DNA from: Spirosoma spitsbergense DSM 19989
Lineage (GTDB): Bacteria; Bacteroidota; Bacteroidia; Cytophagales; Spirosomataceae
DNA length: 64,000 nucleotides
NCBI RefSeq assembly: GCF_000374085.1
Contig: NZ_KB893387.1
Location: 92,909 to 156,908 of the forward strand
Direction: 5' to 3'
Positions 11,364 to 41,012 of the stretch are shown piece by piece. The position numbers and the translations under genes are program-made. How positions within the stretch are numbered: position 1 is the first letter of the stretch; every line of letters starts with the position of its first letter. The notes under the pieces were generated by a model that was given only the letters and a program-made list of their open reading frames with translations, was not told where the DNA came from and searched no databases.

Positions 11364-14300
11364 CTACACCGCGTAGGTTCCGTCGGCGGTTTGGCGCAGG
11401 AGGGCGAGGGCGGCTAAGGTATCCAGTAGGGGCTGTACTTTGCCGGGGGGTGTTTTCGCAAAAAAGGCGGCAACCTGTTTGGTACTGAGCGGAACACCCG
11501 ACTGCTGCACCGTATCCCGAACGGCCTGCATCTGTTGGGCTAACTCTTTTGGCCATTCCTGTTTGAACGCCAGACCGTTTACCGCATCGGGGGCACTGGT
11601 TTTGGTTGCTGTGGTTGTCAGACCAAGATCCAACTGCTGTTGCGGTCCGGCGTTCCGGCCGGGTGCCGGAACGCCGGACCGCTGATATTCGGGGCGCAAA
11701 TACCGGATTTGTCCGGCGGCTTCCTCCGCGGCTCGTTTGTGGTTTAGCTGAACAAGGCGGGTTAGTATTTCGCTCGGTCCGTCGCTACGGTCGGGCAGGC
11801 CATCCGGCCATCCGTAGGCATCGGCAACGGCCGCGTCTATCTGTTGGTGCAGACTGAGCACCACCGACGCCAACCCCTGTTGGTTGATTGTTTGGTCTTT
11901 GGCGTTCAACGGTTCGCTCCCGCGCAACTTTTCAACGACGTTGTAGAGGTCCGTAAGGGTCAGGGTAGAGTGTGCGGCCTGTTGGCGTTTACGGTGTGCG
12001 TCTAATTGTTCTGCCAGTTCACGAATGCGTTCCTGCTGTTGCGGTGTGGCATCGGGGAAAGGAAACGGGTCGAAACATCGGGTTTTGTTATATCGAGGTG
12101 TATTGCCGCCCAAATCACCACCAGCCGCTAATGCCCAAACTACATGAATATTGCTCGATAAGACGCCAAGATGATAAGAGTCATCCAAGGCGATTGCCAC
12201 TAACATGTTGTCAGGAATAATATTTGAATCTAGGAATTGAAATACCCGGTGTTTAGCCGTTTCAACTGTGGCTATATAGCGTTTAGTCGGTTTGATAGCT
12301 GCTCTTAAATCGTCTCTCGTGCGACCGTGTAGCCACCACTTCTTTTTGACGTTAGGCTCTTTACTTGTGTCCCGTTCTGGCTTTACTCGTTCAAGAACGT
12401 GCTGGTAAACAATTGGATATCGTTGTAGGGCTTCGGCATCAGACAAACCAAAAAGGTCAATAATTTTTGCACCTCGACTATTTCCGGTAAAGTCCTTACC
12501 GTTTAGATAATCCTTAATTACCGCTACGCTTGCAGGGTCTTTTTGCAAGATGTCATCTGATTCTACTTCGTTTAAAATAAACCCTGATCCGTACAGTTGC
12601 ATCCCCCTGTTAGATAAACCCTCATTAGCTTTTAGCGACCTAGTAGAGTCAAGTTCAGCACCGATTGTCAAATCAGATAAGATTGTGCCTTGTTGCGTGA
12701 CAAATGATACTTCGGCGGCATCCTCTCCAATTGGTACACTTTCAGATTTTACCGTTAGTAGACTACCGTTGACCACTCCGTTACTCCGTCGTTCCCCTAC
12801 TGTCATAGCAACTCTTACAGCAGCTCCATCTAAATTATCTACCCAAGGATGATCTGGAATTGCGAATACTAGAGACGCTTTATTTCTGTTACCCTCAATG
12901 TATTCTTGAACAATACGTCGATTGTACGTCTGAGTGATAGAGTTGGTTGTTATGAATCCAAAACGCTCTGATTCGCCTTGTACTAACGTCTTTGCAGCCT
13001 TGTACCACCAATACATAACTAAATCAACAGAGTCTGGGATATGACCAAAGTATGCTACACGTAATGCTTCTACGTACCCATCTCCCAATGATTCCTTCAT
13101 TCGTTTACTTCCAACAAACGGCGGGTTGCCAACAATAAAATCAGCTTGCGGCCATTCGGCGGGTTGCGGGTTTGGGTAGTCGTAAACGGTCGTTTGGGCG
13201 GTTTCGTCAGGTACGGGTTGGCCGGTTGCCGAGTGTAATTTGGTCGTTACCCCATCCCACCGTGTAACGGGTTGCCCGCTGGTGTCCAAACGCGGAACAG
13301 GCGGGCCGTGTTGCAATACGGCATCCTGTTGGCGTATGTTCTCGTATTCGTCTAACAGCGGTTCGGGTAATTCACTTTCGCCGTGGGTGCGCAGGTGCCA
13401 TTGCAGATAACCAATTTTCAGCACCACATCGGCAATAGCAGCCGCCCGGGGGTTCAGTTCCAGCCCCAACAGTTGCCGGGGTGAAATGGTCGTACCTCCG
13501 CTGAGGTTGAGCAAACCCGTTCCGCCGTAGGAGTTGATAGCCGCCAATACTTCACCCTCCAGGCGTTTGAGGTGTTCCAGCGTTACATACAGGAAATTGC
13601 CCGAACCACAGGCCGGGTCCAGAATTTTGATGGTCGTCAGCCGACGTAAGAACCGTTCCAGTTCGGCACGGGCCGCGTTCGGTCGGGCTGGTTTCTCTTT
13701 TCCTTCCTCCAACAGTTGTGCGGCCGCAGCCTGCGCAGCCGCCCATTCCCGGCGCAGGGGTTCCAGCACCGTAGGCAGTACCAACCGCTCCACATACCGG
13801 CGCGGGGTGTAGTGGGCACCCAGGCTATGCCGTTCGCGGGGGGCCAGCGCCCGTTCCAGCAAGGTGCCAAAAATGGCCGGTTCTACGGCGGTCCAGTCCG
13901 ATTCTGCCGATTTGAGCAACAAGGCTATCTGATCAGCGGTCAACGGCAACGCCCGGGCATCGTGAAACAGTTTGCCGTTAAACTTTCGTAGCCGGGCCTT
14001 CAGTTCGGAAGAAAACCCGCCCGTATCCATCGTATGCCAGAGATTTTCTAAGGCATCGGGCAAAAATTCGCGTAGTTCCGGTTTTGAGTATTCGCGTAAC
14101 AGACCCGTAAAGGAGGTTTTGGGTATCAGGCCCACATCTTCCGAAAACATGGTAAACAGGCACCGCATCAGGAACTGGGCCACCAGATCGGGCGTATGTC
14201 CTGCCCTTTCTAATTGCGCGGATAGGTTCGCTAAATAGCCCGCCAGTTCACGCGTTACGCGGGCGGCTCGTCGGCTGGAGTCCAGTTCGCGGGGGTCGGT

Positions 14301-26712: not shown

Positions 26713-26964
26713 TCAGGCGGGGTGTAGTTCAAAGGAATATTCTTCCATGATAAGATTGGCCAGGAGCTGTTTGCAGGCTTCGTCAACGGTTTGACGGGCT
26801 TTCTCTTCGGTATCTGCTTCCACGTTGAGCCGGATGTGCTTGCCGATACGAACATTATCGATAGTGTCCATATGGAGATTATGAAGCCCTAATTTGACCG
26901 CCTTTCCCTGAGGATCCAGAATTTCAGAACGGGTCATGATGTTAATTTCAGCGATGTATGTCAT
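26713..26964 (-). CDS. purS: Phosphoribosylformylglycinamidine synthase subunit PurS
   Basis: 83 residues, the normal PurS length. Opening YIAEINIMTRSEILDPQGKA, then LGLHNLHMDTIDNVRIGKHI and CKQLLANLIMEEYSFEL are the conserved segments. PurS is the small dimeric subunit that bridges PurQ and PurL in the three-subunit FGAM synthase (purine biosynthesis, step four). purQ and purL are not in the window, so the genes are scattered as in many Bacteroidota. Confidence 0.92.
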   Translation of the reverse strand: MTYIAEINIMTRSEILDPQGKAVKLGLHNLHMDTIDNVRIGKHIRLNVEADTEEKARQTVDEACKQLLANLIMEEYSFELHPA

Positions 26965-26972
26965 TTTTTAAT

Positions 26973-27059
26973 GAGTGAAAGTGTGAAAGAGCGAAAGAGC
27001 GGCTGACGCGAGCAATCTGTATGCTTCAGCCGCTCTTTCGCTCTTTCACACTTTCACTC
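26973..27059. repeat. Word-type inverted repeat A with GGCTGACGCG apex
   Basis: Perfect 34-bp inverted repeat (26973-27006 and 27026-27059) with a 19-nt loop. The arm is an 8-nt periodic word, AGTGAAAG TGTGAAAG AGCGAAAG AGCG, then GGCTGA. The apex from GGCTGACGCG to TCAGCC spans 27001-27031 (31 nt), the same length as apices at 37078 and 38179. The right arm is the last 34 bases of pssA: it encodes its C-terminal residues and its TGA stop. Confidence 0.85.
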
Positions 27060-27718
27060 TTTGAAATTAGTGAAACGAGGATGTACAATAAAATAATGAG
27101 CGGGATGGCCGCAAACTGCAAAAATAACAGGAGTAAGACGGAAGCAATCAGAAAACTGTATGTAACGCGGTTTGCGGCCCAGCCGAAGGATTTAAATTTA
27201 AGGGCAAATAGCGGTAAATCCATCACCATCATAAACGAAAACGCAATCAGCATACCCCAGGCAATGTCGTTTTGCCAGATCGCGTTGTACTGCGGCTGAT
27301 ACCGCTCCATAAGGGGAAGGGCTGCAATCAGCATGGTGTTGGCAGGCGTGGGTAAGCCAATGAACTGGTCGCTCTGGCGGGTGTCGATGTTGAATCGGGC
27401 GAGTCGCAGGGCGGATAAAACCGCGATCAAAAAAGCCCCGTACGAGATTGGTCCCAACCCCTGAAACCAGCCGTATTGAAAAACAATGGTAGCGGGCAAT
27501 ACGCCGAACGTGACGACATCGGCCAGCGAATCGAGTTCTTTTCCGAATGGACCGGCAACGTTGACCAGGCGGGCCACGAAGCCATCACCAAAGTCCAGTA
27601 TCAGGGCCAGCCCGACTAGCCAGGCAGCCGTGTCAAGATGCCCGCGCAGCGTCATTACGATGCCAATGCACCCGCACAACAGGTTGCCGCAGGTCATGGC
27701 GTTAGGGATATGCTTCAA
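27026..27718 (-). CDS. pssA: CDP-diacylglycerol-serine O-phosphatidyltransferase
   Basis: 230 residues, polytopic membrane protein. The CDP-alcohol phosphotransferase signature is clear: DFGDGFVARLVNVAGPFGKE followed by LDSLAD (DG..AR, then G, then D...D). It makes phosphatidylserine from CDP-diacylglycerol and serine, the first step to phosphatidylethanolamine. About six hydrophobic segments. Its last ten or so residues (SKSESVKERKSG) and the TGA stop are encoded by the arm of inverted repeat A, so the tail is repeat-derived rather than family sequence. Confidence 0.92.
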   Translation of the reverse strand: MKHIPNAMTCGNLLCGCIGIVMTLRGHLDTAAWLVGLALILDFGDGFVARLVNVAGPFGKELDSLADVVTFGVLPATIVFQYGWFQGLGPISYGAFLIAVLSALRLARFNIDTRQSDQFIGLPTPANTMLIAALPLMERYQPQYNAIWQNDIAWGMLIAFSFMMVMDLPLFALKFKSFGWAANRVTYSFLIASVLLLLFLQFAAIPLIILLYILVSLISKSESVKERKSG

Positions 27719-27753
27719 ATCTTAGTTATAAATGTTGACCGAGTCGCCGGTGC

Positions 27754-27819
27754 GATGATGAAGTATGAATGAGACCGGCACCAGACAAAAGAAAGCTAAC
27801 ATCATTCATAATTCATCAT
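27754..27819. repeat. Word-type inverted repeat H
   Basis: ATGATGAAGTATGAATGA (27755-27772) pairs with TCATTCATAATTCATCAT (27802-27819), 17 of 18 positions. It is built from the word ATGAT/ATGAA, abuts the stop of the MBL-fold gene (27820) and lies upstream of pssA. Confidence 0.65.
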
Positions 27820-28461
27820 TTATAATTCCTGAAGGTACGGGTTTGTTTTTTTCTCCTTCCCAATGGTTGTGGGTTCCATGTGTCCAGGATAAACAACGTA
27901 ATCATCAGGCAGGGTAAAAAACTGGGTCTTTATACTATTTAGCAGGGCCTCGTGGCTACAAAAAGGAAAATCGGTTCGCCCAACGCTCCCGTTGAACAGC
28001 ACATCACCCCCAATTACGTAGCGATCGGCATGATTGACAAACGCTACATGACCTGGTGCGTGGCCCGGTACAAAGATGACATCTAAAACGGTATTGCCGA
28101 AGCGAATTGGCTCGCCTGCTACCAGGGGTTCGTCAATGTCAGATGGTTCGTATCCGCGTAAACCATATAGGGCGCAGCGCGCAGGTACATCGTCGTATAT
28201 GACGTTATCCAACGGGTGGAGATAGGCTTTAACCCCGAATTTTCGCTTTACGTAGGCTACACCAAAGACATGATCGAGGTGAGCGTGGGTGAGCAGCAGG
28301 TACTTAACGCTGAGTTTATGATCAGTAATGAATTCGCTCAAAGCCTCTTTTTCGGCCTGATCATAACAGCCGGGATCGATAATGACCGCTTCGCCCGTAG
28401 TGTCATCGGCAACGACGTACGTGTTTTCCTGAAAGGGCGAGAACGTGAACGATTTAATCAT
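27820..28461 (-). CDS. MBL-fold hydrolase, glyoxalase II-like
   Basis: 213 residues. The metal-binding set is complete: THAHLDH (about 58-64), GHAPGH, GGDVLFNGSVGRTD and the final YPGHMEPTT. IIDPG near the start and SVGRTDFPFCS match the GloB-like subgroup (YcbL type), which hydrolyses S-lactoylglutathione or related thioesters with two metal ions. It starts with FSPFQENTYVV, usual for the family. The substrate is not certain, since many members are not true glyoxalase II. It is codirectional with, and 23 nt from, the RsmI-like gene. Confidence 0.88.
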   Translation of the reverse strand: MIKSFTFSPFQENTYVVADDTTGEAVIIDPGCYDQAEKEALSEFITDHKLSVKYLLLTHAHLDHVFGVAYVKRKFGVKAYLHPLDNVIYDDVPARCALYGLRGYEPSDIDEPLVAGEPIRFGNTVLDVIFVPGHAPGHVAFVNHADRYVIGGDVLFNGSVGRTDFPFCSHEALLNSIKTQFFTLPDDYVVYPGHMEPTTIGKEKKTNPYLQEL

Positions 28462-28484
28462 AGATGGATTCTACTACTTTTTCA

Positions 28485-29186
28485 CTACAAAAGTAGAAAT
28501 ACCGTTGGTTTTTTGCGCAAATCGGGGATGGCCGATTTCCATTCCTTGATGGTTAGGGTGCGGACAAACGCATCGGGCGCGGTTACGTTGCACGCTACAC
28601 ACAAGCGGGTATTCGCCTGGCAATTGGCTAGTACATCCGCAAAGAGCGCATCATTCCGGTAGGGGGTTTCCATGAAAATCTGCGTCTGAATACGTTGCTG
28701 TGCCTCCTTCTCCAGGTTACGTATGGCGCGGGCGCGGTCCTGCCGTTCGATGGGCAGGTAGCCGTGAAAAACAAACGATTGCCCACTCATACCCGATGCC
28801 ATCAGGGCCAGTAAAATGGACGATGGCCCCACCAGTGGTTCTACCCGCCAACCCAGCGAATGCGCCATGCCCACCACCACGGCACCCGGATCAGCCACGC
28901 CGGGGCAACCTGCTTCAGACAGCACGCCCGCGTTTTTTTTTCGCTCCATCGTGGCCTGAATCTGTCGGCGTGTGTCGGCGGGGGGGGTATCCTTGTCGAG
29001 GTTGAAAAACGTGGTTTCATCGATGACCCGGCTCGTTTTCAGGCCCGTGATAAACCGCCGGGCCGACCGTACATTTTCAACGAAATAGGTATCCGTTTTT
29101 TCGATAACGTCCCGAATGGCCGGGGGTAACACCAGCGAAGCGGTATCGTCGGCAAGCAGGGTTGGTATGAGGTAGAGTGTAGGCAT
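28485..29186 (-). CDS. SAM-dependent methyltransferase, RsmI-like (tetrapyrrole methylase fold)
   Basis: 233 residues from the ATG at 29186 (MPTLYLIPTLLADD); a frame 13 codons longer is repeat-derived. FVENVRSARRFI, GVLSEAGCPGVADPGAVVV, VGPSSILLALMASGM and FHGYLP are the conserved blocks of RsmI and its relatives, which methylate 16S rRNA C1402. This shorter version, with IERQDR and ETPYRN, is the form common in Bacteroidota beside a standard RsmI, so it may be a paralog with a different target. Confidence 0.82.
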   Translation of the reverse strand: MPTLYLIPTLLADDTASLVLPPAIRDVIEKTDTYFVENVRSARRFITGLKTSRVIDETTFFNLDKDTPPADTRRQIQATMERKKNAGVLSEAGCPGVADPGAVVVGMAHSLGWRVEPLVGPSSILLALMASGMSGQSFVFHGYLPIERQDRARAIRNLEKEAQQRIQTQIFMETPYRNDALFADVLANCQANTRLCVACNVTAPDAFVRTLTIKEWKSAIPDLRKKPTVFLLL

Positions 29187-29234
29187 ATTTTTTTGTAGGC
29201 AGAGATGCAAAGAAAACCTCAGCATTCTTTTCTG

Positions 29235-30017
29235 TTATTCTTGCGTCTGTGCGGTTAAAAAGGACACCAGTATCGTCACAAACTCGGCTGGTTTCTCGGC
29301 CTGTATCCAGTGCCCGGCCCCCTGAATAGTTTCGATTTGAACGGTGGAGAAAATTTGCCTGATACCCGGTATGTCTTCATCCAGGATGTAGGGCGATTCG
29401 CTGCCCCGGATGAACAATGTTGGCTCGGGCACGATTTGGGGGTTTGTCAGTTCTCCGCCTACGCCGTGTAGCTCGCGCTCGATAACGGGCAGGTTCAGGC
29501 GCCAGGCAAAATGGCCATCTTCACTTCGGTACAGGTTCTTGAGTAAAAACTGCCGTACCGTCAGGGAGGGTTCGTAGGCCGAGAGAGCCGCATCGGCATC
29601 GCCCCGACTTTTGATGGTTGCCAGGTCAATCGACTTCAGTCCCCGGACAAGTTCGGCATGATGAACCGGGTAAAACTTGGGGGCAATATCGACCACAACC
29701 AGTTTGGCAAACGTGCCCGGATAGGTCATCGCGTACTGCATCACCGTTTTTCCACCCATCGAGTGACCAACCAGCACCGGTTTTTCCAGGTTGTGTTCAA
29801 CCAGGAACTCGCGCAGGTCGGCAGCCATACTCGGGTAATCCTGATCATCGCCCCGTGGTGACTGTCCGTGATTTCGCTGATCAACCGCGAAGATGCGGTA
29901 TCCCTGAGCCGCGATGGTTTTGCTGATGGTTAGCCAGTTGTCCGAAGAACCAAAAATGCCATGAAGAATGACAAGGACCGGACCGGTCTCCCCAATTTCT
30001 CTAAAATAAAGTTTCAT
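29235..30017 (-). CDS. Alpha/beta hydrolase, YbfF-like esterase
   Basis: 260 residues from the ATG at 30017, since the 16 residues before it come from inverted repeat G. The fold is complete: LHGIFGSSDNW oxyanion loop, VDQRNHGQSP, nucleophile elbow VGHSMGGKT (Ser near 96), acid residue in the TLFIRG-SPYI region, and catalytic His in GAGHWIQAEKP. Cytoplasmic, no signal. The family includes acyl-CoA and short-chain esterases; the substrate is unknown. It sits 108 nt downstream of selD on the same strand. Confidence 0.85.
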   Translation of the reverse strand: MKLYFREIGETGPVLVILHGIFGSSDNWLTISKTIAAQGYRIFAVDQRNHGQSPRGDDQDYPSMAADLREFLVEHNLEKPVLVGHSMGGKTVMQYAMTYPGTFAKLVVVDIAPKFYPVHHAELVRGLKSIDLATIKSRGDADAALSAYEPSLTVRQFLLKNLYRSEDGHFAWRLNLPVIERELHGVGGELTNPQIVPEPTLFIRGSESPYILDEDIPGIRQIFSTVQIETIQGAGHWIQAEKPAEFVTILVSFLTAQTQE

Positions 30018-30030
30018 CGTAAAGGTTTCA

Positions 30031-30117
30031 TCGCAAAGACGCGATGGTGAGCGCAAAGAACGCAACAGCTACACGAAAAAACACGGTGTTCTTTGCGAAT
30101 CCTTCGCGTCTTTGTGG
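30031..30117. repeat. Word-type inverted repeat G
   Basis: TCGCAAAGACGCGATGGTGA and onward (30031-30063) pairs imperfectly with 30085-30117 (CTTTGCGAATCCTTCGCGTC in its centre). The word is CGCAAAGA(A/C). A similar but weaker pairing lies at 29196-29250 (GCAGAGATGCAAAGAAAA with CTTGCGTCTGTGC), so the same word appears on both sides of the alpha/beta hydrolase gene. Confidence 0.65.
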
Positions 30118-30125
30118 TGAATGAC

Positions 30126-31178
30126 TTATTGTACATACACGGCTTTTTCCCGTTTCTCGACCAACTCGCCAAACGAGTGTAGGGTCATGCCGTTTTCGGT
30201 AGCTACCCGTTCAAATTCTTCGGTGTCTCTGGGTTCAACGGCAATGAGCAGGCCACCCGACGTTTGCGGGTCGGCGAGTATGTATTTTTGCTGTTCGTTA
30301 AGTTCACTGATTTTATGGCCGTAACTGTCCCAGTTGCGGACGGTGCCGCCCGGAAAACTTTTCTGAGCCAGATACTCATCAATCATAGGTAGTTTGGGTA
30401 CAGCCTCAAAATCAACGATGGCACTGAGCCCTGACCCTTCGGCCATTTCGACCAGATGGCCAAGCAAACCAAAGCCCGTTACATCGGTCAGGGCTCTCAC
30501 GTAGGGCAACTTGCCCAGGGTAGCGCCAAACCTATTGAGTTGGGCCATCTGAGCGGGTGCTACATCGGCGTGTTCGGGTTTGAGAATCCCTTTTTTCTGA
30601 GCAGTTGTCAGAATGCCCACACCCAGGGGTTTGGTCAGGTATAGTTTACAGCCCTCTGTAGCGGTGTTGTTCTGTTTGAGGTGGTCGATGCGTACTTTGC
30701 CCGTTACGGCCAGACCAAAAATGGGTTCTACCGTATCGATGCTGTGACCACCCGCCAACGGAATGCCTGCTTCCCGACAGATGGAACGCGCACCTTCCAT
30801 CACCTGACCAGCCACTTCGGGCGGCAACTTATCCACGGGCCAGCCCAGAATTGCGATAGCCATAATGGGTTCTCCCCCCATAGCATACACGTCGCTGATG
30901 GCGTTGGCGGAGGCAATACGGCCAAAATCGAAGGCATCATCCACGATGGGCATAAAAAAATCGGTGGTACTGATAATGGCTTCACCATTGCCCAGGTCGA
31001 GCACCGCTGCATCATCGCGGGAGTCGTTACCAACCAGTAAGCTATTATAATGGGGTTGAGCAGCGGTGTCGTTGCTGTGCAGAATCTGGTCCAGTATTTT
31101 CGGCGAAATCTTACAGCCGCAGCCTGCGCCGTGGCTGTACTGAGTGAGTTTAAAGGAAACGGTTTCAGTTGATGTCAT
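30126..31178 (-). CDS. selD: Selenide, water dikinase
   Basis: 350 residues with the SelD N-terminus [19 protein letters not shown]: Cys20 and Lys23 correspond to the catalytic Cys17 and Lys20 of Escherichia coli SelD, so this is the Cys form, not a selenoprotein. DDAAVLDLG and [11 protein letters not shown] (phosphate and metal-binding Asp) and [13 protein letters not shown] are conserved. It makes selenophosphate from selenide and ATP for selenocysteine or 2-selenouridine tRNA. No SelA, SelB or SelU gene is in the window, so which route it feeds cannot be said. Confidence 0.93.
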
Positions 31179-31504
31179 AACAGGATAAAACTAAGAGTGA
31201 AAAAGAAAAATGGATGGTCTTTTTCCTTAATAAGTACACTTGCAAAAGATTAATGGTTCTTTAATGGATAGCGGTTATCTACGTGATACTGTGTTGTTAA
31301 TAATTTGGTAATACGCACTAGCAGGCAGTAATACAGTCGAAATAAAACTATTCTAAGGTAAATTTTTAATAATCAGTGTAAAGTGGTACTTTTTTGGGAT
31401 ATTTGCTTTTACACCATCAAAAAAAAAGAGCATCTTTGCATCTAAATGGGCAACCTGGCGGATAAGCCCTGCCCCATCGAACTACTAACAAAACAAACAC
31501 TTCT
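31179..31504. other. Divergent promoter region of selD and TonB-dependent receptor
   Basis: No gene. CATCTTTG at 31431-31438 is one base off the TAnnTTTG -7 element and is placed 67 nt before the receptor start, but the nearest TTTG upstream is 25 nt away, longer than usual, so the promoter call is weak. A-rich at 31420-31428. Confidence 0.35.
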
Positions 31505-34500
31505 ATGTCTAAAAAACTACTGCAATTTCGGGTGGCTTTGGTGCTGGTCGGCAGTATGCTATTGGCTTTGCTCAGTGGGAGCGGGGCACTAGCTCAGGTA
31601 ACTTCATCTGCGATTAACGGGTTCGTGACCGACACGAAGGGGGAAGCGTTGCCTGGTGCCACCGTGGTAGCTATTCACACGCCATCTGGTACTCGATACG
31701 GTGCTGTGACCAACACGGCGGGTGTCTATAACATGCCCAACGTTCGGGTTGGTGGACCATATACCATCACGGTATCGTACGTTGGTTTCAAAGAAAAGAT
31801 TCAGGAGAACGTCTTTGCTGCTTTGGGCACTACGGCCAATAATAACTTCAAACTCGATGAAGAAGGTACGAACCTGAACGAAGTAGTTATATCAGGAAAC
31901 CGGAGCGATATTTTTAGTTCTGACCGCACAGGCGCGGCTTCTTCGTTCAACCGGGAAGCCATCAACACCATTCCGACCATTGGTCGTACACTAACCGATA
32001 TCACCAAATACAACCCCTACGGTAATGGACAGTCATTCGCTGGTCAGGACCCGCGTTTCAATAACTTCACCATCGATGGTGCGGTATTTAACAATGGCTT
32101 TGGTTTGGGCGGCTCGGCATTAGCTGGTGGCCGTACGGGTACAACGGCGGTTTCTATTGATGCGCTGGATCAAATTCAGGTGAACGTGGCTCCGTTCGAT
32201 ATTCGGCAGTCGGGTTTCACCGGTGCTGGAATTAACGCTGTAACCCGGTCAGGGACCAACGATTTCTCGGGATCGGTTTATCACCTTTTCCGGAACACGG
32301 GTCTGGTGGGTAAAACAGCGAATGGCAATTCGATAGGTACGGTTAACGTGGATGAAAAAACCTACGGTTTCCGGTTAGGTGGCCCAATCATCAAAAATAA
32401 ACTGTTCTTCTTCATCAACGGCGAACAGTTTACCAGTAGCAACCCGGCTTTGAGTTTCGTAGCCAAACAGGATGGTGCTGCGGGTAACGTTTCGAACGTG
32501 TTATACTCCGACCTGGTTGATCTGAAAAGCTTCATGCAAACAAACTTCGGTTTAGACCTGGGGGCCATTGATAATTATAATAACGAAGTGAAGAGCACCA
32601 AAGGGCTGATTCGTATTGATTATAACATCAATGACAACAACAAACTGTCGGTTCGGTATTCGCACCACAATTCATCGTCGGGTCAGGTAATCAGCAACAG
32701 TAACAGTAGCAATACGGCTGGTAACGGTAACCGGAACGTTTTCCCGAACTCGCTGTCACCACAGAATACGGGTTATATTATTGCTGACAACACTCGTTCT
32801 CTATCAGTCGAACTGACTTCGAGCTTCAACAGCAAGTTTTCCAACAACCTGATTGGTACCTATAATAAGCAAATTGAAGACCGGACGTACCGGACGCAGT
32901 TGTTCCCAACTATCGATATTGCACCGGGTGGAACTACGTACACATCTGTTGGATTCGACCCCTTTACGCCTAATAACAAACTGAACTATTCGACGTTCAA
33001 CATCACGGATAACCTCAGCTATTTTGCCGGCAAGCATACCCTGACGGCGGGCGTTGTTTTTGAGAAGTACACGTCGAATAACGTGTTTTTCCCCTCCTCA
33101 AACGGTGCATATGTATACAACTCCATTGCGGATTTCAAAACGGCTGCTTTAGCGTCGATTAGTAATCCTACGGCTATTTCGTCGCCCGTTACGGTGGCTA
33201 GATATAACCTGCGCTACTCGCTTTTGCCTGGTGGTGCTGAGCCCCTCCAGCAATTGAAGCGTAACCTTTACAGTGCTTATGTGCAGGACGAGTACTTAGC
33301 CAGCCCAAACCTGAAACTGACGCTTGGTTTGCGCGGTGATCTGTTTGATTACGACAATAGTACTGCTTCGTCTTTCAACAACCCGGTTGTAGCAGGTCTG
33401 ACGTTCAACGATGAAAACGGCAACCCCTACAAAATTACGACGGGTGCCTTCCCGAAGCCAAAACTGCTCCTGTCGCCCCGTTTTGGATTTAACTTCGACG
33501 TGAAAGGTGATAAGACAACCCAGATTCGCGGTGGTACGGGTATTTTTGTATCGCGTATTCCTGAAGTGTTAATTTCTAACCAGTTGGGTAACAATGGTGT
33601 AAACACTATATTGACTACTGTAACCAGCACAACAGCTATCCCATTCAGAACTGATCCGAGCCTGTTACCGGCTTCTGTTCGGCTGGATCCGACGACGGTT
33701 AATGTCAATACCCTGCCTCCATACACGATCAATGCATCAGACCCTGACCTGAAGTATCCGCAAATCTGGAAGACAAACATTGCGGTTGATCAACGCTTGC
33801 CCTTTGGTTTGATTGCAACGGTAGAGTTTATCTACAACAAGAACATTCAGGCCCTGCGTTATATCGACGCGAACCTGAAAGCGCCTACCAAAACACTGAG
33901 CGGTCCTGATACACGATCCCTGTTCCCTGCGTTTGGTGTTGTAAGTAGTGGTTCTGGTGCTGCTAATACAGTCAATCAGGCTCGTTATATTAACCCTGGA
34001 ATAGCTAACGCATTCGTGCTGAAAAATACCAACAAGGGTGATTCGTACATTGTTACGTTCAAACTGGAGAAGCCCGTTACCCGGGGTTTTGGTGGTACAG
34101 TTGCCTATACCTACGGACAAGCCCGCGACCTGGCTTTTGTGGGTAGTACGGTTCAGGCCAACGTACCGACTACGGTTGGTCAGAATTACCTGAATACGTC
34201 GTTTGCGGATAATGACCTGCGTCACCGTATTAACGGCTATGTTAACTATCGTCTGAACTACGGTGGTGAGTTTGGTGGCTCTACAGCCTTTACGCTGGGT
34301 GGTACTTATGCCAGTGGAGGCAAAATTTCGTACACCTATAACCAGGATATCAACTCTGACGGACAAACCCAGAACGACCTAATGTATGTACCCAGAAGCG
34401 CGTCTGAACTAACGTTTAGTCCGCTTGTTGTAGGGACAGGGGCAACGGCCGTAACGTACTCCCCAGAGCAACAGCAGGCCGCTTTCGATGCGTACATTAA

Positions 34501-34891
34501 TGGTAACGAATACCTGAGCACCCGCCGGGGGCAGTACGCTGAGCGCAATGGCGGTGCCTACCCATGGCTGGCCCGTTTCGACTTTACAGCCATTCAGGAG
34601 TTTTATATAAAGGTTGGTGGCAAACGCAACACGCTTCAGTTCCGGGTTGATATTTTGAACGTGGGTAACCTGCTTAACGATAAGTGGGGTGTAGGTAATC
34701 TGCAAACGACGTTTAATCCGCTGGCCGTAGCGAGTGTAAACACGACGACGGGCATACCAAGCTACCGGTTGGCTACGCAGAACATCGGCGGTCAGACGGT
34801 TCTGCTCAAAGACTCGTTCGTGAAAAGTGCCTCGCTTAACAATGGTGACGTATATCAGGCCCAGATCGGTCTGCGTTACATCTTCAACTAA
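31505..34891 (+). CDS. TonB-dependent receptor, Oar-like, with carboxypeptidase-regulatory N-domain
   Basis: 1128 residues. A signal peptide ([22 protein letters not shown]) is followed by a CarboxypepD_reg-like beta-sandwich ([20 protein letters not shown] to FKLDEEG, about 33-120), a plug ([12 protein letters not shown]...[13 protein letters not shown]...[20 protein letters not shown]) and a large outer-membrane barrel ending in LRYIFN with a terminal aromatic. The [14 protein letters not shown] segment and the [18 protein letters not shown] phrase are those of the Oar/OmpA-related group rather than SusC. Substrate unknown; no SusD or siderophore genes adjoin. Single gene with a strong terminator. 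Confidence 0.88.
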
Positions 34892-34912
34892 GAACGGTTA
34901 CTTTAATTGACC

Positions 34913-34950
34913 AAAAATCCCCCGCACGAACAACGTGACGGGGGATTTTT
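34913..34950 (+). terminator. Rho-independent terminator of TonB-receptor gene
   Basis: AAAAATCCCCCG (34913-34924) pairs with CGGGGGATTTTT (34939-34950), loop extended by CACG/CGTG pairing, T run at the end. It lies 22 nt past the stop. Confidence 0.8.
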
Positions 34951-34969
34951 ATTGATACCGCTGGATACA

Positions 34970-35836
34970 ATGAAAACTGGTATTTCTATTTTGTTTAGTG
35001 TTCTCTTATCGGGTCCGGTATTGGCGCAGTCGGTCAATCGGTTTCAGGATAGTCAGGCGATTGACGTTTTGCTGCAATACCAGCCGGGCCGTCAGAAACC
35101 GCTTATTCTGGCTCATCGGGGAGGGCCTGGTTTGGTGGATACGGAGAATTCAATCGTCACGTTTACCCAGACTGCGAGCGCCCTTCCAGATGTTATTATC
35201 GAAATGGATGTGCGGATGACTCTCGATAGTGGCTTTGTTTTACTTCATGATGCTACGCTGGATCGGGAGTCGAATGCTACAGGGGCGGTGGCGGAACAAA
35301 CCCTGGTTGACTTGAAGAACGTTAAACTCAAAACGCTCTCCGGCGAACGGACAAATCAAACGATAACGACCTTTACCGAGGTGCTGAACTGGAATAAAAA
35401 CAGCTATCTGTTAGCACTGGATGTCAAGCCGGGAACAGACCCCCTACGGGTGATGCAGGAAGTGGAAATGCATCAGGCCGTGCATTCCGTATTTATTATC
35501 TGTTACTCATTCGCCGAAGCGCAGCGTGTACGTGACCAGTATCCGACGGTATGGTTAGCGGTTGGAGTGAACAGCATGGCTGATCTGGACCGATTAGAAA
35601 CGAATTCACTGGCATCGGGCCATTTGATCGCTCTGACCCCGCAGCAGCTTCAACCAGCATCGTACTATGAACGTTTACACAAACTTGGAGTTCTGTGCGC
35701 TGTGGGCACGTACGGCACTGGCCAGTTAGATGAAAAGCCAATAAAAGAGGCTGCTATTGGCTATCGGGACGTATTTAGCCGAGGGGGAGACGTACTAACC
35801 ACCGACCGGCCACTTGAGGTATCGGTGTTGTTCTGA
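34970..35836 (+). CDS. Exported glycerophosphodiester phosphodiesterase
   Basis: 288 residues from the ATG at 34970, which opens a clean signal peptide (MKTGISILFSVLLSGPVLAQ); a start at 34907 would put the terminator hairpin inside the gene. The GDPD TIM-barrel signature is complete: LAHRGGPGLVDTENSIVTF (catalytic His), EMDVRMTLDSGFVLLHD (metal Glu/Asp and second His) and LALDVKPG. It hydrolyses glycerophosphodiesters from lipid turnover to glycerol 3-phosphate and an alcohol, probably in the periplasm. The C-terminus keeps DVLTTDRPLE. Convergent with the patatin gene. Confidence 0.88.
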   Translation: MKTGISILFSVLLSGPVLAQSVNRFQDSQAIDVLLQYQPGRQKPLILAHRGGPGLVDTENSIVTFTQTASALPDVIIEMDVRMTLDSGFVLLHDATLDRESNATGAVAEQTLVDLKNVKLKTLSGERTNQTITTFTEVLNWNKNSYLLALDVKPGTDPLRVMQEVEMHQAVHSVFIICYSFAEAQRVRDQYPTVWLAVGVNSMADLDRLETNSLASGHLIALTPQQLQPASYYERLHKLGVLCAVGTYGTGQLDEKPIKEAAIGYRDVFSRGGDVLTTDRPLEVSVLF

Positions 35837-35871
35837 TGGTTAGGCCACTCTTAAGGTTACGGGTGGCGTCA

Positions 35872-36867
35872 TTACGGCAAAATAGATACCTTTCCGTCTG
35901 ATTGCTTCATTTTCAGCGTGAAAATACCCGCCTGATACCCCTGCACGATCATCCGGCCGATGTCGTCGGAGTTGAACTTCATCAGGTTGAGCGACAAGGG
36001 CTCTGTAGGCCGGATAAGGGTCAGTTTGAGGTCGCGTCCATGCAACCTTTCCCGTTCTGCGAATCGCTCAGCCCAGGCAATGTCATTATTGACCAGCTGA
36101 TTGACGGTAATGTCTTTAACCCGATCCATCAGGTTCAGCAGGTTGCGGTAGTTGAACTTCTCGTTGTATATTTTTTTTGCGTGGCAGGCTATGCAGGCAA
36201 TATCCGTTGCGCCATCTTCAATCGCTACGCGCAGAGGAGCCACTTCGCGGAGGCCCCCGTCCAGAAACGCCCGCCGGTGATCCCCGCCAATTTGCATGGC
36301 AGGCATTAGAAAGGGCAGCGAACTACTTGCATACACAAAATCCAGAAAGTTAGGGTCGTGTGCATCGGCATAATACATGTCTCCCTCAATAATATCCACC
36401 GCGCCCACCTTGAGGGTTACAGGACCGTTTCTCAGGGCTTCTATATCAACATTTTTTTTTATCAGGTTCTGGATGGGGGAGTTGTCCAGCAATCCATCAA
36501 ACCGCTTCATCAGGGTATTGTAACCCATCCGGAACCGGGACCGGATTATGGCTACATCATCCGGTTTGGTAATATTCCGAATCCAGAACTCAATTAGGTA
36601 CTTCCCCACTTTTATCCAGTCAACCTGACCTGACTGGGCTTGTTGGCGGGCGGCCTCATTGGCCAGAAATGTCGCATTGAGACTCCCTACCGAAATGCCG
36701 TACAGGTGATCCGGGACAAATCCCGACTCAAAAAGGGCCATAGCTGCTCCTGCCTGAAAGGCTCCTTTGAGCGAACCGCCACCCAATACGAGCGCACAGC
36801 CAGATGATTGAGGTTCAGGTATAATGCTGGCTGTTTTCGGAACGGGAGGTATTGGATTGTCGATCAT
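35872..36867 (-). CDS. Patatin-like phospholipase
   Basis: 331 residues from the ATG at 36867; the frame is open to 36966 but that extension has no family content. Oxyanion loop LVLGGGSLKGAFQAG (28-40), nucleophile GISVGSLNA with Ser59, and Asp of FLDGGLREVAP, the catalytic dyad partner (DGG), are all present. A basic C-terminal part (ERERLHGRDLKLTLIRP) follows. The protein is a Ser-Asp acyl hydrolase on phospholipids or lipids; no signal peptide, so probably cytoplasmic or membrane-associated. Next to the convergent glycerophosphodiesterase gene, which also acts on lipid breakdown. Confidence 0.88.
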   Translation of the reverse strand: MIDNPIPPVPKTASIIPEPQSSGCALVLGGGSLKGAFQAGAAMALFESGFVPDHLYGISVGSLNATFLANEAARQQAQSGQVDWIKVGKYLIEFWIRNITKPDDVAIIRSRFRMGYNTLMKRFDGLLDNSPIQNLIKKNVDIEALRNGPVTLKVGAVDIIEGDMYYADAHDPNFLDFVYASSSLPFLMPAMQIGGDHRRAFLDGGLREVAPLRVAIEDGATDIACIACHAKKIYNEKFNYRNLLNLMDRVKDITVNQLVNNDIAWAERFAERERLHGRDLKLTLIRPTEPLSLNLMKFNSDDIGRMIVQGYQAGIFTLKMKQSDGKVSILP

Positions 36868-37043
36868 ACAAGGTAATAGCAAAAGGTGTACGCTGGCTGC
36901 GTAGCTGGTAAATTGAGGTTTTTCGTGGAATAAACAAAACGAATTGAAAGCAGGGACAGTTATCAAAAAGAGTAAGTACCACGATCAACACCTTTTCGGT
37001 GTCTGCGCTTTCCTTGCTAATATTGCCAAAAAATAGCCAGTAG

Positions 37044-37170
37044 GTTGTAATAGTCGTAAGTGGTATTAGTCATAAGTGGCTGGCGCATCCGTATTGCCTG
37101 TGCCGGCCACTTATGCCGACCACGACTTACGACTACTAAAACTCACTTACGCTTCCCACTTACTTACAAC
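37044..37170. repeat. Word-type inverted repeat D with GGCTGGCGCA apex
   Basis: Imperfect long inverted repeat bounded by GTTGTAA (37044-37050) and TTACAAC (about 37164-37170). The arms contain TAGTCGTAAG and CATAAGTGGC on the left, and matching reverse complements GCCACTTATG and CTTACGACTA on the right, with insertions in the right arm. The apex GGCTGGCGCA...GCCGGCC spans 37078-37108, exactly 31 nt as in repeat A. It lies in a divergent gap between the patatin and polyprenyl synthase genes, so it is not a terminator by position. Confidence 0.75.
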
Positions 37171-37177
37171 TCGTCCA

Positions 37178-38152
37178 ATGCCCCTTACCGTCGCTGATAT
37201 ACAGGCCCCCATTGCTGCCGAAATGGAATTGTTCGAGCAGAAGTTTCGGGGACAGATGAAAAGCGATGTGATGCTGCTCGATCAGATTATGAAATACATC
37301 GTGAAGCGGAAGGGGAAGCAGCTTCGGCCCATGTTCGTTTTTTTGATGGCGGGTGTATGCGGGACAATCACGGAGGCAACCTACCGGGGGGCATCACTAA
37401 TTGAATTACTTCATACCGCTACCCTTGTTCACGACGATGTGGTCGATGAGTCAAATTACCGGCGCGGATTTTTCTCCATCAATGCGCTCTGGAAAAATAA
37501 AGTTGCCGTACTGGTGGGCGATTATCTACTATCCAGAGGGTTATTGCTTTCGGTCGACAATGGCGATTACGACCTGCTTAAAATCGTTTCCAGGGCGGTA
37601 CGGGAGATAAGCGAAGGCGAATTACTCCAGCTCTACAAAGCCCGGCGATTAGACATTACCGAGGCTATCTATTATGAAATAATCCGTCAGAAAACGGCAT
37701 CCCTCATTGCCGCCTGTTGTGCCGTAGGAGCGCGTTCTGTCGATGTTGGAGAAGATATTGTGGAGCAGGCGCGGGTGTTTGGGGAGAAAGTTGGCATTGC
37801 TTTTCAGATTAAAGACGACCTGTTCGACTACGGTACGGCCGAAATCGGGAAGCCGCTGGGTATCGACATCAAAGAAAAAAAGATGACGCTACCGCTCATT
37901 TATGCCCTCAACAACGCTGGTTTTCTGGAAAAAAGACGGATTATCAATATCATCAAAAACGAAAGTGAAAAACCTAAAAAGGTAGATGAGGTCATCACCT
38001 TTGTCAAGCAATCGGGCGGTATCGAATACGCTACGGCAGCCATGAATAGTTACGTTGCCGAAGCGCAGACGTTGCTCAATTCTTTTCCCGAATCCCCTTA
38101 TCGTCAGTCGCTCCACCAGTTGGTGCAGTATACGATTGACAGGAGCAAGTAA
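37178..38152 (+). CDS. Polyprenyl diphosphate synthase (trans-isoprenyl diphosphate synthase)
   Basis: 324 residues from the ATG at 37178; the frame runs open to 37076, but those 34 codons are inverted repeat D. Both aspartate-rich motifs are present: LVHDDVVDE (DDxxD at 86-90) and IKDDLFDYG (213-217), plus GKQLRPMFVFL and the KTASLIAACC helix. It condenses IPP with allylic diphosphates to long-chain prenyl diphosphate, probably for the menaquinone side chain. Chain length is not fixed by sequence here, although small residues before the first DDxxD (ELLHTATLV) suggest a long product. Confidence 0.9.
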   Translation: MPLTVADIQAPIAAEMELFEQKFRGQMKSDVMLLDQIMKYIVKRKGKQLRPMFVFLMAGVCGTITEATYRGASLIELLHTATLVHDDVVDESNYRRGFFSINALWKNKVAVLVGDYLLSRGLLLSVDNGDYDLLKIVSRAVREISEGELLQLYKARRLDITEAIYYEIIRQKTASLIAACCAVGARSVDVGEDIVEQARVFGEKVGIAFQIKDDLFDYGTAEIGKPLGIDIKEKKMTLPLIYALNNAGFLEKRRIINIIKNESEKPKKVDEVITFVKQSGGIEYATAAMNSYVAEAQTLLNSFPESPYRQSLHQLVQYTIDRSK

Positions 38153-38160
38153 TTTTTAAG

Positions 38161-38243
38161 TAGTAGGAGTGAGGAGTTGCTGATGTGTCGATAATAATAC
38201 GCGTCAGCCACTCCTCACTCCTCACTCCTCACTCCTCACTCCC
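38161..38243. repeat. Word-type inverted repeat C with GGCTGACGCG apex (minus strand)
   Basis: Arms of a 7-nt word GGAGTGA: left 38166-38178, right 38210-38243 with about five copies of CTCACTC. The arms are unequal (right longer), and the apex 38179-38209 (31 nt) reads on the minus strand GGCTGACGCG...CATCAGC. It lies between convergent genes, and the right arm encodes the end of the desaturase gene, including its TGA stop. Confidence 0.8.
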
Positions 38244-39022
38244 AATCCAGACTTCGCCGTTTTCTCCTTAAACAGCCGATGGAAGTCGGGGCTTTCCGTA
38301 TTCATCCACTTATCCCAGAATGTGAAGTAAAGTCCATAGTTGAACCGGAACTGCGTATGATGCAGGCTATGGTGCGTAGCACCGATAAGCCATCGCCCCA
38401 GCCAGTGGGTATTGAAATTGTGGGGATATATTTCGGTATTAAGGTGGTTAATAGCACTCGATATGGTCATAATGACCAGAATGATGCCAATAGCCGACGT
38501 GTGCAAGGGTATCACAAAGGTTAGCAGTGGGATAATAATTGCCTGTAAGGTACTTTCTGTGGGGTGGAATGAGAAGGCAGTCCAGGGGGAAGTGGTCAGG
38601 CTGTCGTGGTGCGTTTTGTGTACCAGTTTATACACGCCGGGTCGGTGCATCCAGCGGTGAAGCCAGTAGTAGTAGGTTTCATGGATAAACAGAACCAGTA
38701 AAATGCTGAACGGATACCACACCAGTGGATAAGCATTGAAATCGGTATAAATCAGGCCATAGCCAGAATTATAGGCCAGAATGACGGCCACTGCCATGAG
38801 GGTGAAAATGAGGGAAGTTATAACCGACCAGCCAATCTCCCGCCAGTCCTGACCCGGTTTACGGGGTCGGTTCTGCACCGCACGATGGGTGAATTGCTGT
38901 TTCATCGACACGTTGAATAACCACCAGAACCCCAGCGAAAACAGGACATACCGGCCAAAGATGGCGGTGAAAAATAGCAAGCCTGTCAGCCATAAGGAAC
39001 CCGGACCAAAAATCTGAATCAT
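38222..39022 (-). CDS. Sterol desaturase/fatty acid hydroxylase family protein
   Basis: 266 residues, integral membrane, with the diiron histidine clusters of the family: HETYYYWLHRWMH (HxxxH type), HKTHHD (HxxHH), and HHSLHHTQFRFNYGLYF near the C-terminus. Four or more hydrophobic segments flank them (about 10-30, 60-80, 95-112, 165-190). Such enzymes hydroxylate or desaturate lipids using O2; the substrate is unknown, perhaps a carotenoid, hopanoid-like lipid or fatty acid. The final residues (LGVRSEE) and the stop come from repeat C. Confidence 0.87.
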   Translation of the reverse strand: MIQIFGPGSLWLTGLLFFTAIFGRYVLFSLGFWWLFNVSMKQQFTHRAVQNRPRKPGQDWREIGWSVITSLIFTLMAVAVILAYNSGYGLIYTDFNAYPLVWYPFSILLVLFIHETYYYWLHRWMHRPGVYKLVHKTHHDSLTTSPWTAFSFHPTESTLQAIIIPLLTFVIPLHTSAIGIILVIMTISSAINHLNTEIYPHNFNTHWLGRWLIGATHHSLHHTQFRFNYGLYFTFWDKWMNTESPDFHRLFKEKTAKSGLGVRSEE

Positions 39023-39271: not shown

Positions 39272-40966
39272 ATGCGCCTGATCTCTTCAGCTCTTTTTCT
39301 GGTTTCACTGACCATAACCACCTTTGCCCAATCCAGGAAATTAGTAAATACCGCGGTAAAGAATACAACTGCAACGCAGGTGAGCCCGCAAATGGGTAAG
39401 CCAAAACTCGTTGTTGGCATCGTCATCGACCAAATGCGCTATGACTACCTCTATCGGTACTATGCTAAGTTTGGAACGACAGCTACTACAGGAAGTGGAT
39501 TCCGGCGGTTGATGGATGAGGGATTTAATGCCCGAAACAATCACTACCATTACGCAGCTACCTACACTGGTCCTGGTCATGCGGCCATCTATACGGGGTC
39601 GGCACCCGCAATCAATGGTATTGTTGGTAATGACTTTTACGAACGAAATCTGGGACGGTTGATGTACTGTGCCGAAGATACGACAGTAAGCACAGTTGGA
39701 AATACCGGTACAGCCGGTAAAATGTCGCCCCGAAATTTACAGGTCACTACCATTGGCGATCAACTTAAACTCGCCACCGACGGGCGGGCCAAAGTCATTG
39801 GCATTGCCCTGAAAGACCGGGGAGCTATCCTGCCTGCCGGCCATGCTGCCAATGCCGCTTACTGGTTCGACTCGAAAGACGGCAGCTTTATCAGCAGCAC
39901 CTTTTACCAGAACGATCTGCCAAAATGGGTACAGGAGTTTAACGCCCGGAAGCTGGGCGATCAGTTTTTAGGTCAGAAATGGGAACCTGTACTGCCCCTG
40001 AATCAATATACCGAAAGTACGACCGACGATCAGGCGTATGAAAACGCTATGCCCGGCGAAGCCAAACCTGTTTTCCCGCATGAGTTTGCGGTTCAGGCGG
40101 GTAGTAGTAAATATGAAGTATTGCGTACCAGTCCCTATGGTGATCAAATCACGAAAGAGTTTGCGCTGGCTGCCTTGAAAGGGGAGCAATTAGGGCAGGA
40201 TGACATCACGGATATGCTGTGCGTCAGCTTCTCGTCGCCCGATTACGTTGGTCACGCCTTTGGTACGCACGCCATTGAAACAGAAGATCAGTACATCCGG
40301 CTCGACCGGCAACTGGCCGATTTGTTTACGCAACTGGATGCCAGTGTGGGCAAGGGTCAATGGCTGGCGTTTCTGTCTGCCGACCATGGCGTAGTGGATG
40401 CGCCGGGTTTTTTGCAGCAGTATCGTATTCCAGCGGGCGTTAAGGGGTACGGCGACATTGGCGAAACGGTGAAAGCGTCGCTCGAAAAAGCCTATGGACC
40501 CGGCAAATGGATGCTTTCATACATCAATCAGCAGGTATACCTCAATCACGCCCTGCTGGCCGAAAAGAAGATTGCGCTTCAGGACGTGTACGCGTTGCTG
40601 CGAACTGATTTGCTTCGGCAGAAAGCCGTTGTCAATGTCATCAACCTCCATAATCTGGGGGCCGAGGCTCTGCCACAGTTGCAGGAAAACTTACTGCGTA
40701 ATGTGTATTACCCAAACCGCAGCGGAGATTTTTACATCCTTCAATCGCCGGGCTGGATTGAGGGCCGCACGAAGGGGACAACCCACGGGAGCAGCTATGC
40801 CTATGATACACACGTTCCTTTTTTGCTCTACGGGTGGGGTATAAAACCGGGGCAAACGCTACGTAGAACCCATATTCATGACATCGCCCCTACGATAACC
40901 GCTTTACTCGGAATACTGGAACCCAGCGGTTGTATCGGTAACCCGGTAGAGGAAGCGATTAAATAA
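39272..40966 (+). CDS. PafA-type alkaline phosphatase
   Basis: 564 residues from the ATG at 39272, which starts a signal peptide (MRLISSALFLVSLTITTFAQ); the frame is open to 39134 with no family match. Motifs of the alkaline phosphatase superfamily: metal Asp in GIVIDQMRYDYLYRY, the nucleophile Thr in AATYTGPGHAAIYTG, SSPDYVGHAFG (Asp and His), LSADHGV (Asp-His) and THIHDIAPTITALLGI (His). The Thr nucleophile and the NDFYER pattern fit PafA of Elizabethkingia, a broad periplasmic phosphomonoesterase. Convergent with birA through repeat B. Confidence 0.88.
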   Translation: MRLISSALFLVSLTITTFAQSRKLVNTAVKNTTATQVSPQMGKPKLVVGIVIDQMRYDYLYRYYAKFGTTATTGSGFRRLMDEGFNARNNHYHYAATYTGPGHAAIYTGSAPAINGIVGNDFYERNLGRLMYCAEDTTVSTVGNTGTAGKMSPRNLQVTTIGDQLKLATDGRAKVIGIALKDRGAILPAGHAANAAYWFDSKDGSFISSTFYQNDLPKWVQEFNARKLGDQFLGQKWEPVLPLNQYTESTTDDQAYENAMPGEAKPVFPHEFAVQAGSSKYEVLRTSPYGDQITKEFALAALKGEQLGQDDITDMLCVSFSSPDYVGHAFGTHAIETEDQYIRLDRQLADLFTQLDASVGKGQWLAFLSADHGVVDAPGFLQQYRIPAGVKGYGDIGETVKASLEKAYGPGKWMLSYINQQVYLNHALLAEKKIALQDVYALLRTDLLRQKAVVNVINLHNLGAEALPQLQENLLRNVYYPNRSGDFYILQSPGWIEGRTKGTTHGSSYAYDTHVPFLLYGWGIKPGQTLRRTHIHDIAPTITALLGILEPSGCIGNPVEEAIK

Positions 40967-41012
40967 AAGCGCGAAAGAGTGATTGTGCGATGATTTCACT
41001 CTTTCGCACTTT
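40966..41012. repeat. Word-type inverted repeat B
   Basis: AAAGCGCGAAAGAGTGA (40966-40982) pairs with TCACTCTTTCGCACTTT (40996-41012), one G-T, 13-nt loop; a further CGCACTTT follows on the right. The word AGTGCGAA has an 8-nt period like repeat A, but the GGCTGA apex is absent. The right arm encodes the last residues and the stop of birA, and the left arm begins at the pafA stop. Confidence 0.75.

What the first reader, a model, noticed from the sequence alone, without database searches (positions are those of the whole stretch)
26973..38243. Family of palindromic elements with unrelated word-repeat arms but a shared 31-nt apex
Three long inverted repeats (26973-27059, 37044-37170, 38161-38243) have different arms built from short tandem words (AGTGAAAG; TAGTCGTAAG/CATAAGTGGC; GGAGTGA). 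Yet each has at its tip a stem-loop of exactly 31 nt that starts GGCTGRCGCR and ends in a pairing CAGC(C)/CGGCC (27001-27031, 37078-37108, 38179-38209 on the minus strand). They occupy a codirectional, a divergent and a convergent gap, so transcription termination alone does not explain them. A conserved head with variable, word-built arms could mean a mobile or self-templated element whose arms are copied or expanded at the insertion site. I know of no described family with this architecture.
Basis: partly seen in the sequence, partly recalled or inferred. Interest (0 to 1): 0.75.

Follow-up and report, generated by a model that had tools for sequence, protein, structure and literature searches.

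The report
Self-copying hairpins with shared tip
In Spirosoma and a few related bacteria, some of the long DNA hairpins between genes carry a shared short repeat at their tips, and the two sides of such stems change together between species, probably because one side is copied from the other.

Summary
The three hairpins and their 31-nt tips are at the stated places. The tip is a real repeat family: GCTGACGC-N(7-22)-GCGTCAGC occurs 715 times in 46 of 222 same-family genomes, against 3 for the backwards control (sums), mainly in genera that I match to Spirosoma, Fibrella and Larkinella. Its loops share lineage-specific motifs. Arms are word-built and differ by locus.

At 27001 words predate the tip: 25 of 30 orthologous gaps are rich in GA words and only this genome has the tip. 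The two arms of intergenic hairpins in these genomes, mostly without the tip, evolve in concert: 62 paired double changes against 5.6 expected. Three hairpins differ by whole words in both arms. Best explanation: replication template switching (quasipalindrome correction) on hairpins that mostly lie behind genes (64 of 68 placed tip loci), plus a REP-like tip repeat of unknown spreading mechanism. A RAYT transposase is not supported: genomes with 44 and 23 tips have no Y1 match. Selection for RNA pairing remains a live rival for the arms.

The parts
26966..27066 (.). hairpin 1, codirectional gap between a CDP-alcohol phosphatidyltransferase (pssA-like) and a purS gene; AGTGAAAG/AGCGAAAG words
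   Evidence: genes; orthologous gaps
27001..27031 (+). tip 1, GGCTGACGC family; present in this genome only among 30 orthologous gaps examined
37039..37147 (.). hairpin 2, divergent gap between a patatin-like and a polyprenyl synthetase gene; GTCGTAAGT words
   Evidence: genes
37078..37108 (+). tip 2, GGCTGGCGC variant; a decayed orthologous tip is seen by eye in the closest relative G011, and a tip lies in the same gap of G023
38161..38243 (.). hairpin 3, convergent gap between the polyprenyl synthetase and a fatty acid hydroxylase gene; GGAGTGA words
   Evidence: genes
38179..38209 (-). tip 3; the orthologous gap has a tip in 7 of 30 genomes examined
40966..41012 (.). word-built hairpin of the same class (GCGAAAGAGTGA) without the tip
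27755..27819 (.). word-built inverted repeat (ATGATGAATTATGAATGA-like) with a 29-nt spacer, without the tip

Best explanation
Two layers. (a) Intergenic hairpins, mostly just behind stop codons, whose two arms are kept alike at DNA level: when the replication fork meets the hairpin, the nascent strand switches template and copies one arm into the other (quasipalindrome correction). Substitutions and word gains or losses in one arm are thereby written into the other. Slippage between words then changes arm length, so the same gap carries different words in different species. (b) A short dyad repeat, GCTGACGC-N(12-15)-GCGTCAGC, sits at the tips of a subset of these hairpins and has multiplied separately in several genera of the family, as REP-like repeats do. 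Shown: the repeat family, its lineage-specific loops, the concerted arm changes, the positions behind genes, and one tip gain onto existing word arms. Inferred: template switching as the cause, slippage as the source of words, a 3'-end role. Unknown: how the tip moves.
For: Repeat family: 715 against 3 control matches in 222 genomes. Loop motif: 3.84 against 1.44 for shuffled letters, largest of ten 1.66. Loops are more alike within than between three genera (0 of 500 permutations as high) and than letter-shuffled loops of equal length (hand-picked loops: 33 of the 50 listed, and 26 and 30 from the other two genera).

Arms: conditioning on the query hairpin only, 56 orthologous hairpins gave 62 double changes that keep pairing (5.6 expected) and 125 one-sided (248 expected). 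39 of 62 doubles are transitions (0.63), close to 0.68 in the aligned stretches, so they do not look routed through G-U. Words of 7 to 14 nt present or absent in both arms: G028 against G010 at 114817, 127515, 202784 (by eye). Doubles are concentrated in some hairpins (variance 2.60, largest of 2000 shuffles 2.35). Position: 107 of 238 convergent, 126 of 773 codirectional and 13 of 263 divergent gaps hold at least one palindrome.
Against: Doubles are not significantly adjacent within hairpins (11 against 7.4 expected, 145 of 2000 shuffles as high), while one-sided changes are (31 against 16.6, 0 of 2000), the opposite of what single multi-base copying events would predict; misalignment may contribute. 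Spacer inversion, the other mark of template switching, is rare: of 45 loop comparisons 23 forward, 4 flagged inverted, 18 undecided. Only two loci are credible, and one of them can equally be a copy of a neighbouring tip. 125 one-sided changes and 16 double changes that break pairing show that copying is incomplete. Compensatory selection on an RNA hairpin also gives double changes. Most hairpins in the arm test lack the tip, so concert at tip hairpins rests on few loci. Word origin by slippage was not tested.
Confidence: 0.6

Rival explanations
1. The hairpins are RNA structures at mRNA 3' ends (terminators, stabilisers), kept paired by ordinary compensatory selection, with no arm copying.
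For: Positions behind genes; strong predicted RNA stems, -35 to -74 kcal/mol for the three hairpins; 46 of 226 other palindromes have T-tracts; double changes not adjacent.
Against: 23 of 62 double changes are transversions, about the share in the aligned stretches; one-sided changes show no excess of transitions (76 to 49); words appear in both arms at three loci; no T-tract in 29 palindromes with a tip-like core and 27 word hairpins.
Confidence: 0.25
2. The tip is a REP mobilised by a Y1 (RAYT/TnpA-REP) transposase.
For: REP-like size, dyad, lineage-specific amplification. Tip and Y1 match counts correlate in the genus (Spearman 0.50 in all 36, 0.55 in 32 more complete genomes), without correction for kinship and with gene fragments counted. 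Bacteroidetes Y1 subclass 2.6 is reported with atypical flanking structures copied elsewhere in the genome (PMC6006769, section 25).
Against: G145 has 44 tips and G033 has 23, both without a Y1 match; 2 of 40 fetched Y1 loci hold a tip-like match; of 13 Y1 loci in this genome only L033 has GGCTGACG, in a different repeat; no GTAG tag at the tip border.
Confidence: 0.12
3. A mobile element inserts as a tip and builds its arms from the target at each insertion.
For: Different arms at different loci with one tip; arms alike within a locus; T next to the tip in 95 of 121 flanks, a possible site preference.
Against: Word arms exist without the tip in the orthologous pssA-purS gaps, and arm concert occurs in palindromes without the tip.
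Confidence: 0.1
4. The tip is a protein-binding dyad (operator or nucleoid site) kept by selection, and its spread is by recombination among word arms.
For: Near-complete dyad in G147, with T and A at the two central places in 51 of 58 readings each; two tips about 2.8 kb apart in G010 have identical 13-nt loops although their orthologs differ.
Against: The strict pattern is absent in 8 of 36 genomes of the genus (three of the 8 are incomplete); few in divergent gaps, unlike an operator; only one such ectopic case seen.
Confidence: 0.1

Closest known systems
Quasipalindrome correction / inverted-repeat template switching (E. coli reporters, PMC7202029, passages seen; yeast arm homogenisation and spacer inversion, PMC8604942, abstract seen; RNA stems, PMC8794818, abstract seen)
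   Same: Arms made alike, paired changes, perfect stems; two credible spacer inversions here.
   Different: As far as I saw, those papers treat reporter sites, coding genes or RNA genes; here it concerns a dense intergenic class (282 palindromes in 2.05 Mb), part of it built from words and part sharing a tip repeat.
REP / REPIN repeats with RAYT transposases (PMC3733652, abstract, passages and section 6 seen; PMC3116915, listing only)
   Same: Short extragenic palindrome, many copies, lineage-specific sequence, mostly downstream of genes.
   Different: No GTAG tag, no linked Y1 gene found, long loop, embedded in variable word arms.
CGTC-tagged REPs (PMC3733652, section 6)
   Same: The letters CGTC occur, CCA follows many tips, stem of 8-9 bp.
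   Different: CGTC is inside the paired stem here, and loops are mostly 12-15 nt, not 4-5.
Coding palindromes of Nematomorpha mitochondria (PMC6649704, passages seen)
   Same: Concerted evolution of perfect inverted-repeat arms, template switching proposed.
   Different: Coding, mitochondrial; no shared tip mentioned in the passages seen.
Cyanobacterial short tandem word repeats and small dispersed repeats (recalled, not tested)
   Same: Heptamer-like intergenic words.
   Different: As I recall them they are tandem, not mirrored into hairpins around a tip.

Membership tests
GTAG REP / RAYT system | unpaired GTAG at one end | tested here: not met
   Flanks of GGCTGACGC end most often in GTT (41), AGT (27), GGT (12) among two flanks each of 61 tips.
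GTAG REP / RAYT system | cognate Y1 transposase gene flanked by the repeat | tested here: not met
   2 of 40 fetched Y1 loci have a tip-like match; tip-rich G145 and G033 have no Y1 match; own genome 13 loci, none with the tip. Y1 loci that the tool did not hand out were not examined.
CGTC REP | terminal unpaired CGTC, 8-9 bp stem, loop of 4-5 | tested here: not met
   CGTC lies in the stem; loops 12-15 nt in 50 of 65 loci (which searched 9-19 only); definition from PMC3733652 section 6.
Quasipalindrome template switching | arm homogenisation between relatives | tested here: met
   62 paired double changes against 5.6 expected in 56 hairpins; 80 concerted against 8 ortholog-type and 55 single columns in 52 hairpin pairs chosen as palindromic on both sides.
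Quasipalindrome template switching | spacer inversion | tested here: inconclusive
   Two credible loci; 4 flagged inverted, 23 forward, 18 undecided of 45 comparisons.
Quasipalindrome template switching | multi-base paired changes in one event | tested here: inconclusive
   Double changes concentrated by hairpin but not adjacent beyond chance; event timing needs mutation accumulation or strain pairs.
Intrinsic terminator | stem followed by T-tract | tested here: not met
   0 of 29 palindromes with a tip-like core (9 palindromes of the set have the paired tip) and 0 of 27 word hairpins, 46 of 226 others. The consensus scan gave 5 terminator-like sites against 12.6 in shuffles, none at the three hairpins, but it allows loops of 3-8 only.
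Rfam RNA families | score above gathering cut-off | tested here: not met
   14 matches with E up to 1 in 26900-38400, none at gathering; 13 are miRNA-hairpin models, one a leader model outside the hairpins.
Integron attC, DNA uptake sequences | integrase sites / very high single-site copy number | not tested
   Considered from memory only.

The most novel reading that the evidence does not exclude
A hairpin-tip-specific mobile module without fixed ends: it lodges at the tips of existing stems, and hairpin-templated synthesis rewrites the stems around it, so each copy has its own arms and the element spreads without a linked transposase, perhaps by strand switching between hairpins that share words.
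Probability: 0.22. Interest if true: 0.82.

Novelty: new variant of a known kind. Interest (0 to 1): 0.56.

Why it matters
If right, these genomes give a natural, dense record of template switching in bacteria: many orthologous hairpins per genome pair in which copying, slippage and tip replacement can be counted. That would make testable whether long perfect stems are kept by selection or by mutation itself, and would add a repeat family with no enzyme found so far to the open question of how REP-like repeats spread.

Tried and rejected
RAYT mobilisation: looked for Y1 genes in own genome, genus and a tip-rich genus; correlation found but no linkage. L033 at first seemed to link a Y1 gene with the tip (5 copies of GGCTGACG or its complement); on reading, they belong to another repeat, CCCCGATAGGGGCTGACGGTCAATA.

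Known RNA family: Rfam, nothing at gathering. Plain intrinsic terminators: no T-tract. Tip gain and loss on a tree for the convergent gap: a strict search found 5 of 30 and gave no more clustering than shuffles (141 of 500 as low); a looser search found 7 of 30; the tree was not rerun. A covariance model of the tip was not built; patterns with a backwards control were used instead.

Adjacency of double changes as a mark of copying: not significant, while one-sided changes are clustered. One search is biased because both hairpins had to be palindromic and ungapped, and some G028 hairpins enter it twice (against G010 and G007); one search was run without these. In one search, 13 of 69 anchored hairpins were dropped for low identity. 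My first palindrome script missed odd spacers and was corrected. One search counts 95 outside matches, including 40 loci whose organism was not listed; the comparison uses the 80 listed loci only. Word richness is a crude motif count without a control. Genes are ORFs called by length. The tip-like core needs one half-site only.

Literature: searches listed no paper that I recognised as describing this tip or word-built palindromes in Spirosoma, Fibrella or Larkinella; the library lacks most subscription journals. PMC10434271 (term search and passages) does not name Spirosoma in its main text.
Full report
WHAT IS THERE. The window is G000:C1:92909-156908, from a 7.5 Mb genome in 237 contigs. 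The genus is very probably Spirosoma: locus L047 of genome G006 in the same genus is identical over the printed stretch around the tip to a Spirosoma endophyticum record (L172). By matches of the tip alone, g10 is probably Fibrella and g22 Larkinella (tips against L157, L196, L205, L194, L227). Pfam gives the neighbours as a CDP-alcohol phosphatidyltransferase, PurS, patatin, polyprenyl synthetase and fatty acid hydroxylase.

MORE THAN CHANCE. Fifteen palindromes in the window score 13 or more; ten shuffles gave one in all. In 2.05 Mb of stretches from eight genomes of the genus I count 282 palindromes of score 15 or more. Of 191 with arms of 20 or more, 34 are word-built by a periodicity measure that 4 of 191 letter-shuffled arms pass. 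29 of the 282 have a tip-like core with at least one half-site, 7 of them also word-built by this strict measure; 9 of the 282 have the paired tip. So tips are a minority of the hairpins.

THE TIP FAMILY. The strict pattern is present in 28 of 36 genomes of the own genus, 5 of 5 in g10 (2 to 106 copies), 6 of 9 in g22, 4 of 4 in g29, 1 of 2 in g11, 1 of 2 in g36 and 1 of 48 in g8: 46 of 222 in all, 715 forward matches against 3 for the control (my sums). Loops have a weak common motif and are more alike within than between three genera in hand-picked sets of 33, 26 and 30 loops. In the 106-copy genome the loop is itself nearly a dyad, T and A at the two centre places in 51 of 58 readings each (29 loops read both ways). 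This is what a repeat that multiplied separately in several lineages would show.

ARMS CAME FIRST, AT LEAST ONCE. In the gap of hairpin 1, 30 of the 35 genomes with the upstream gene were compared: 25 are rich in GA words, 20 have a palindrome of score 9 or more (2.0 expected from shuffles), one (this genome) has the tip. The closest relative, G011 (96% identity in the upstream protein), has the words without the tip. In the convergent gap 7 of 30 genomes have a tip and 14 a palindrome (0.85 expected); words differ between species. In the divergent gap 10 of 30 have a palindrome (0.4 expected); the tip search flags only G023, since this genome's own tip 2 is too divergent for it. G011 has a decayed form of tip 2, by eye.

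ARMS CHANGE TOGETHER. Orthologous hairpins were compared between genomes with 81-93% DNA identity. In 52 pairs with a palindrome in both, 80 columns are concerted, 8 ortholog-type, 55 single, and all 6 internal indels are mirrored, a choice biased towards concert. Without that condition, 56 of 69 anchored hairpins could be aligned: 62 double changes keep pairing (5.6 expected), 125 are one-sided (248 expected), 16 double changes break pairing. 23 of the 62 are transversions, 37% against 32% in two sets of aligned stretches. Words of 7 to 14 nt are present or absent in both arms at once in G028 against G010 at 114817, 127515 and 202784 (by eye). This is homogenisation; template switching is the known process that gives it (PMC8604942 and PMC8794818, abstracts; PMC7202029, passages). 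RNA selection alone would favour changes that can pass through G-U; the sample does not show that. But it is small, and double changes are not significantly adjacent while one-sided ones are, which does not favour copying.

WHERE THEY LIE. 107 of 238 convergent, 126 of 773 codirectional and 13 of 263 divergent gaps hold at least one palindrome, genes being called by ORF length only. Tip loci: 32, 32 and 4, with 8 inside naive ORFs; the median distance of the tip from a gene border is 28 to 39 nt in convergent and codirectional gaps. So they sit at gene ends, but without T-tracts (0 of 29 with a tip-like core, 0 of 27 other word hairpins, 46 of 226 other palindromes). A role as 3'-end structure is likely and untested.

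HOW THE TIP MOVES. Not known. Y1 transposases are not linked, although counts correlate. In G028 against G010 (91% identity), tips look shared at five of six loci and missing at one (190872), by eye. In G010 two tips about 2.8 kb apart have identical loops while their orthologs differ, which hints at copying between hairpins.

VERDICT. A real, lineage-restricted architecture, not a chance pattern. Its two halves are each of a known kind (quasipalindrome correction; REP-like repeats). Their combination, with word-built arms, I did not find described in the searches listed under Tried and rejected.

Noticed in passing
11264-11355 (window); also many in G001 stretches L135, L138-L140: Perfect 33-bp inverted repeat TTTTTTGTCATTCTGAGGAACGAAGAATCTTCG; a second palindrome family (19 of 282 palindromes match a TGTCATYCCG-like motif).
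   Followed up: partly
11642-11682 (window); L074, L085, L139 9957-10064, L190, L402: GC-rich module like GCTCCGGCGGCCCGG / CCGGCGTTCCGG found inside one arm, or mirrored in both arms (L139), of other palindromes; looks like another small insert that can be copied from arm to arm.
   Followed up: no
L033 1371-2190 (G000:C230): Y1 transposase gene flanked by several copies of its own REP-like repeat CCCCGATAGGGGCTGACGGTCAATA.
   Followed up: partly
L136 16066-16145, L148, G000:C113 stretch 74171: GTAGAGACGC...GCGTCTCTAC palindromes whose spacers contain GCTGACGC and CCGGATGG-like pieces; the spacer is inverted between G000 and G011.
   Followed up: partly
G004/G005 pssA-purS gap (L092, L095): Two close genomes have entirely different word palindromes in the same gap (GAGCGAAAG against ATGATTGAA words), so the vocabulary of a gap can be replaced as a whole.
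   Followed up: partly
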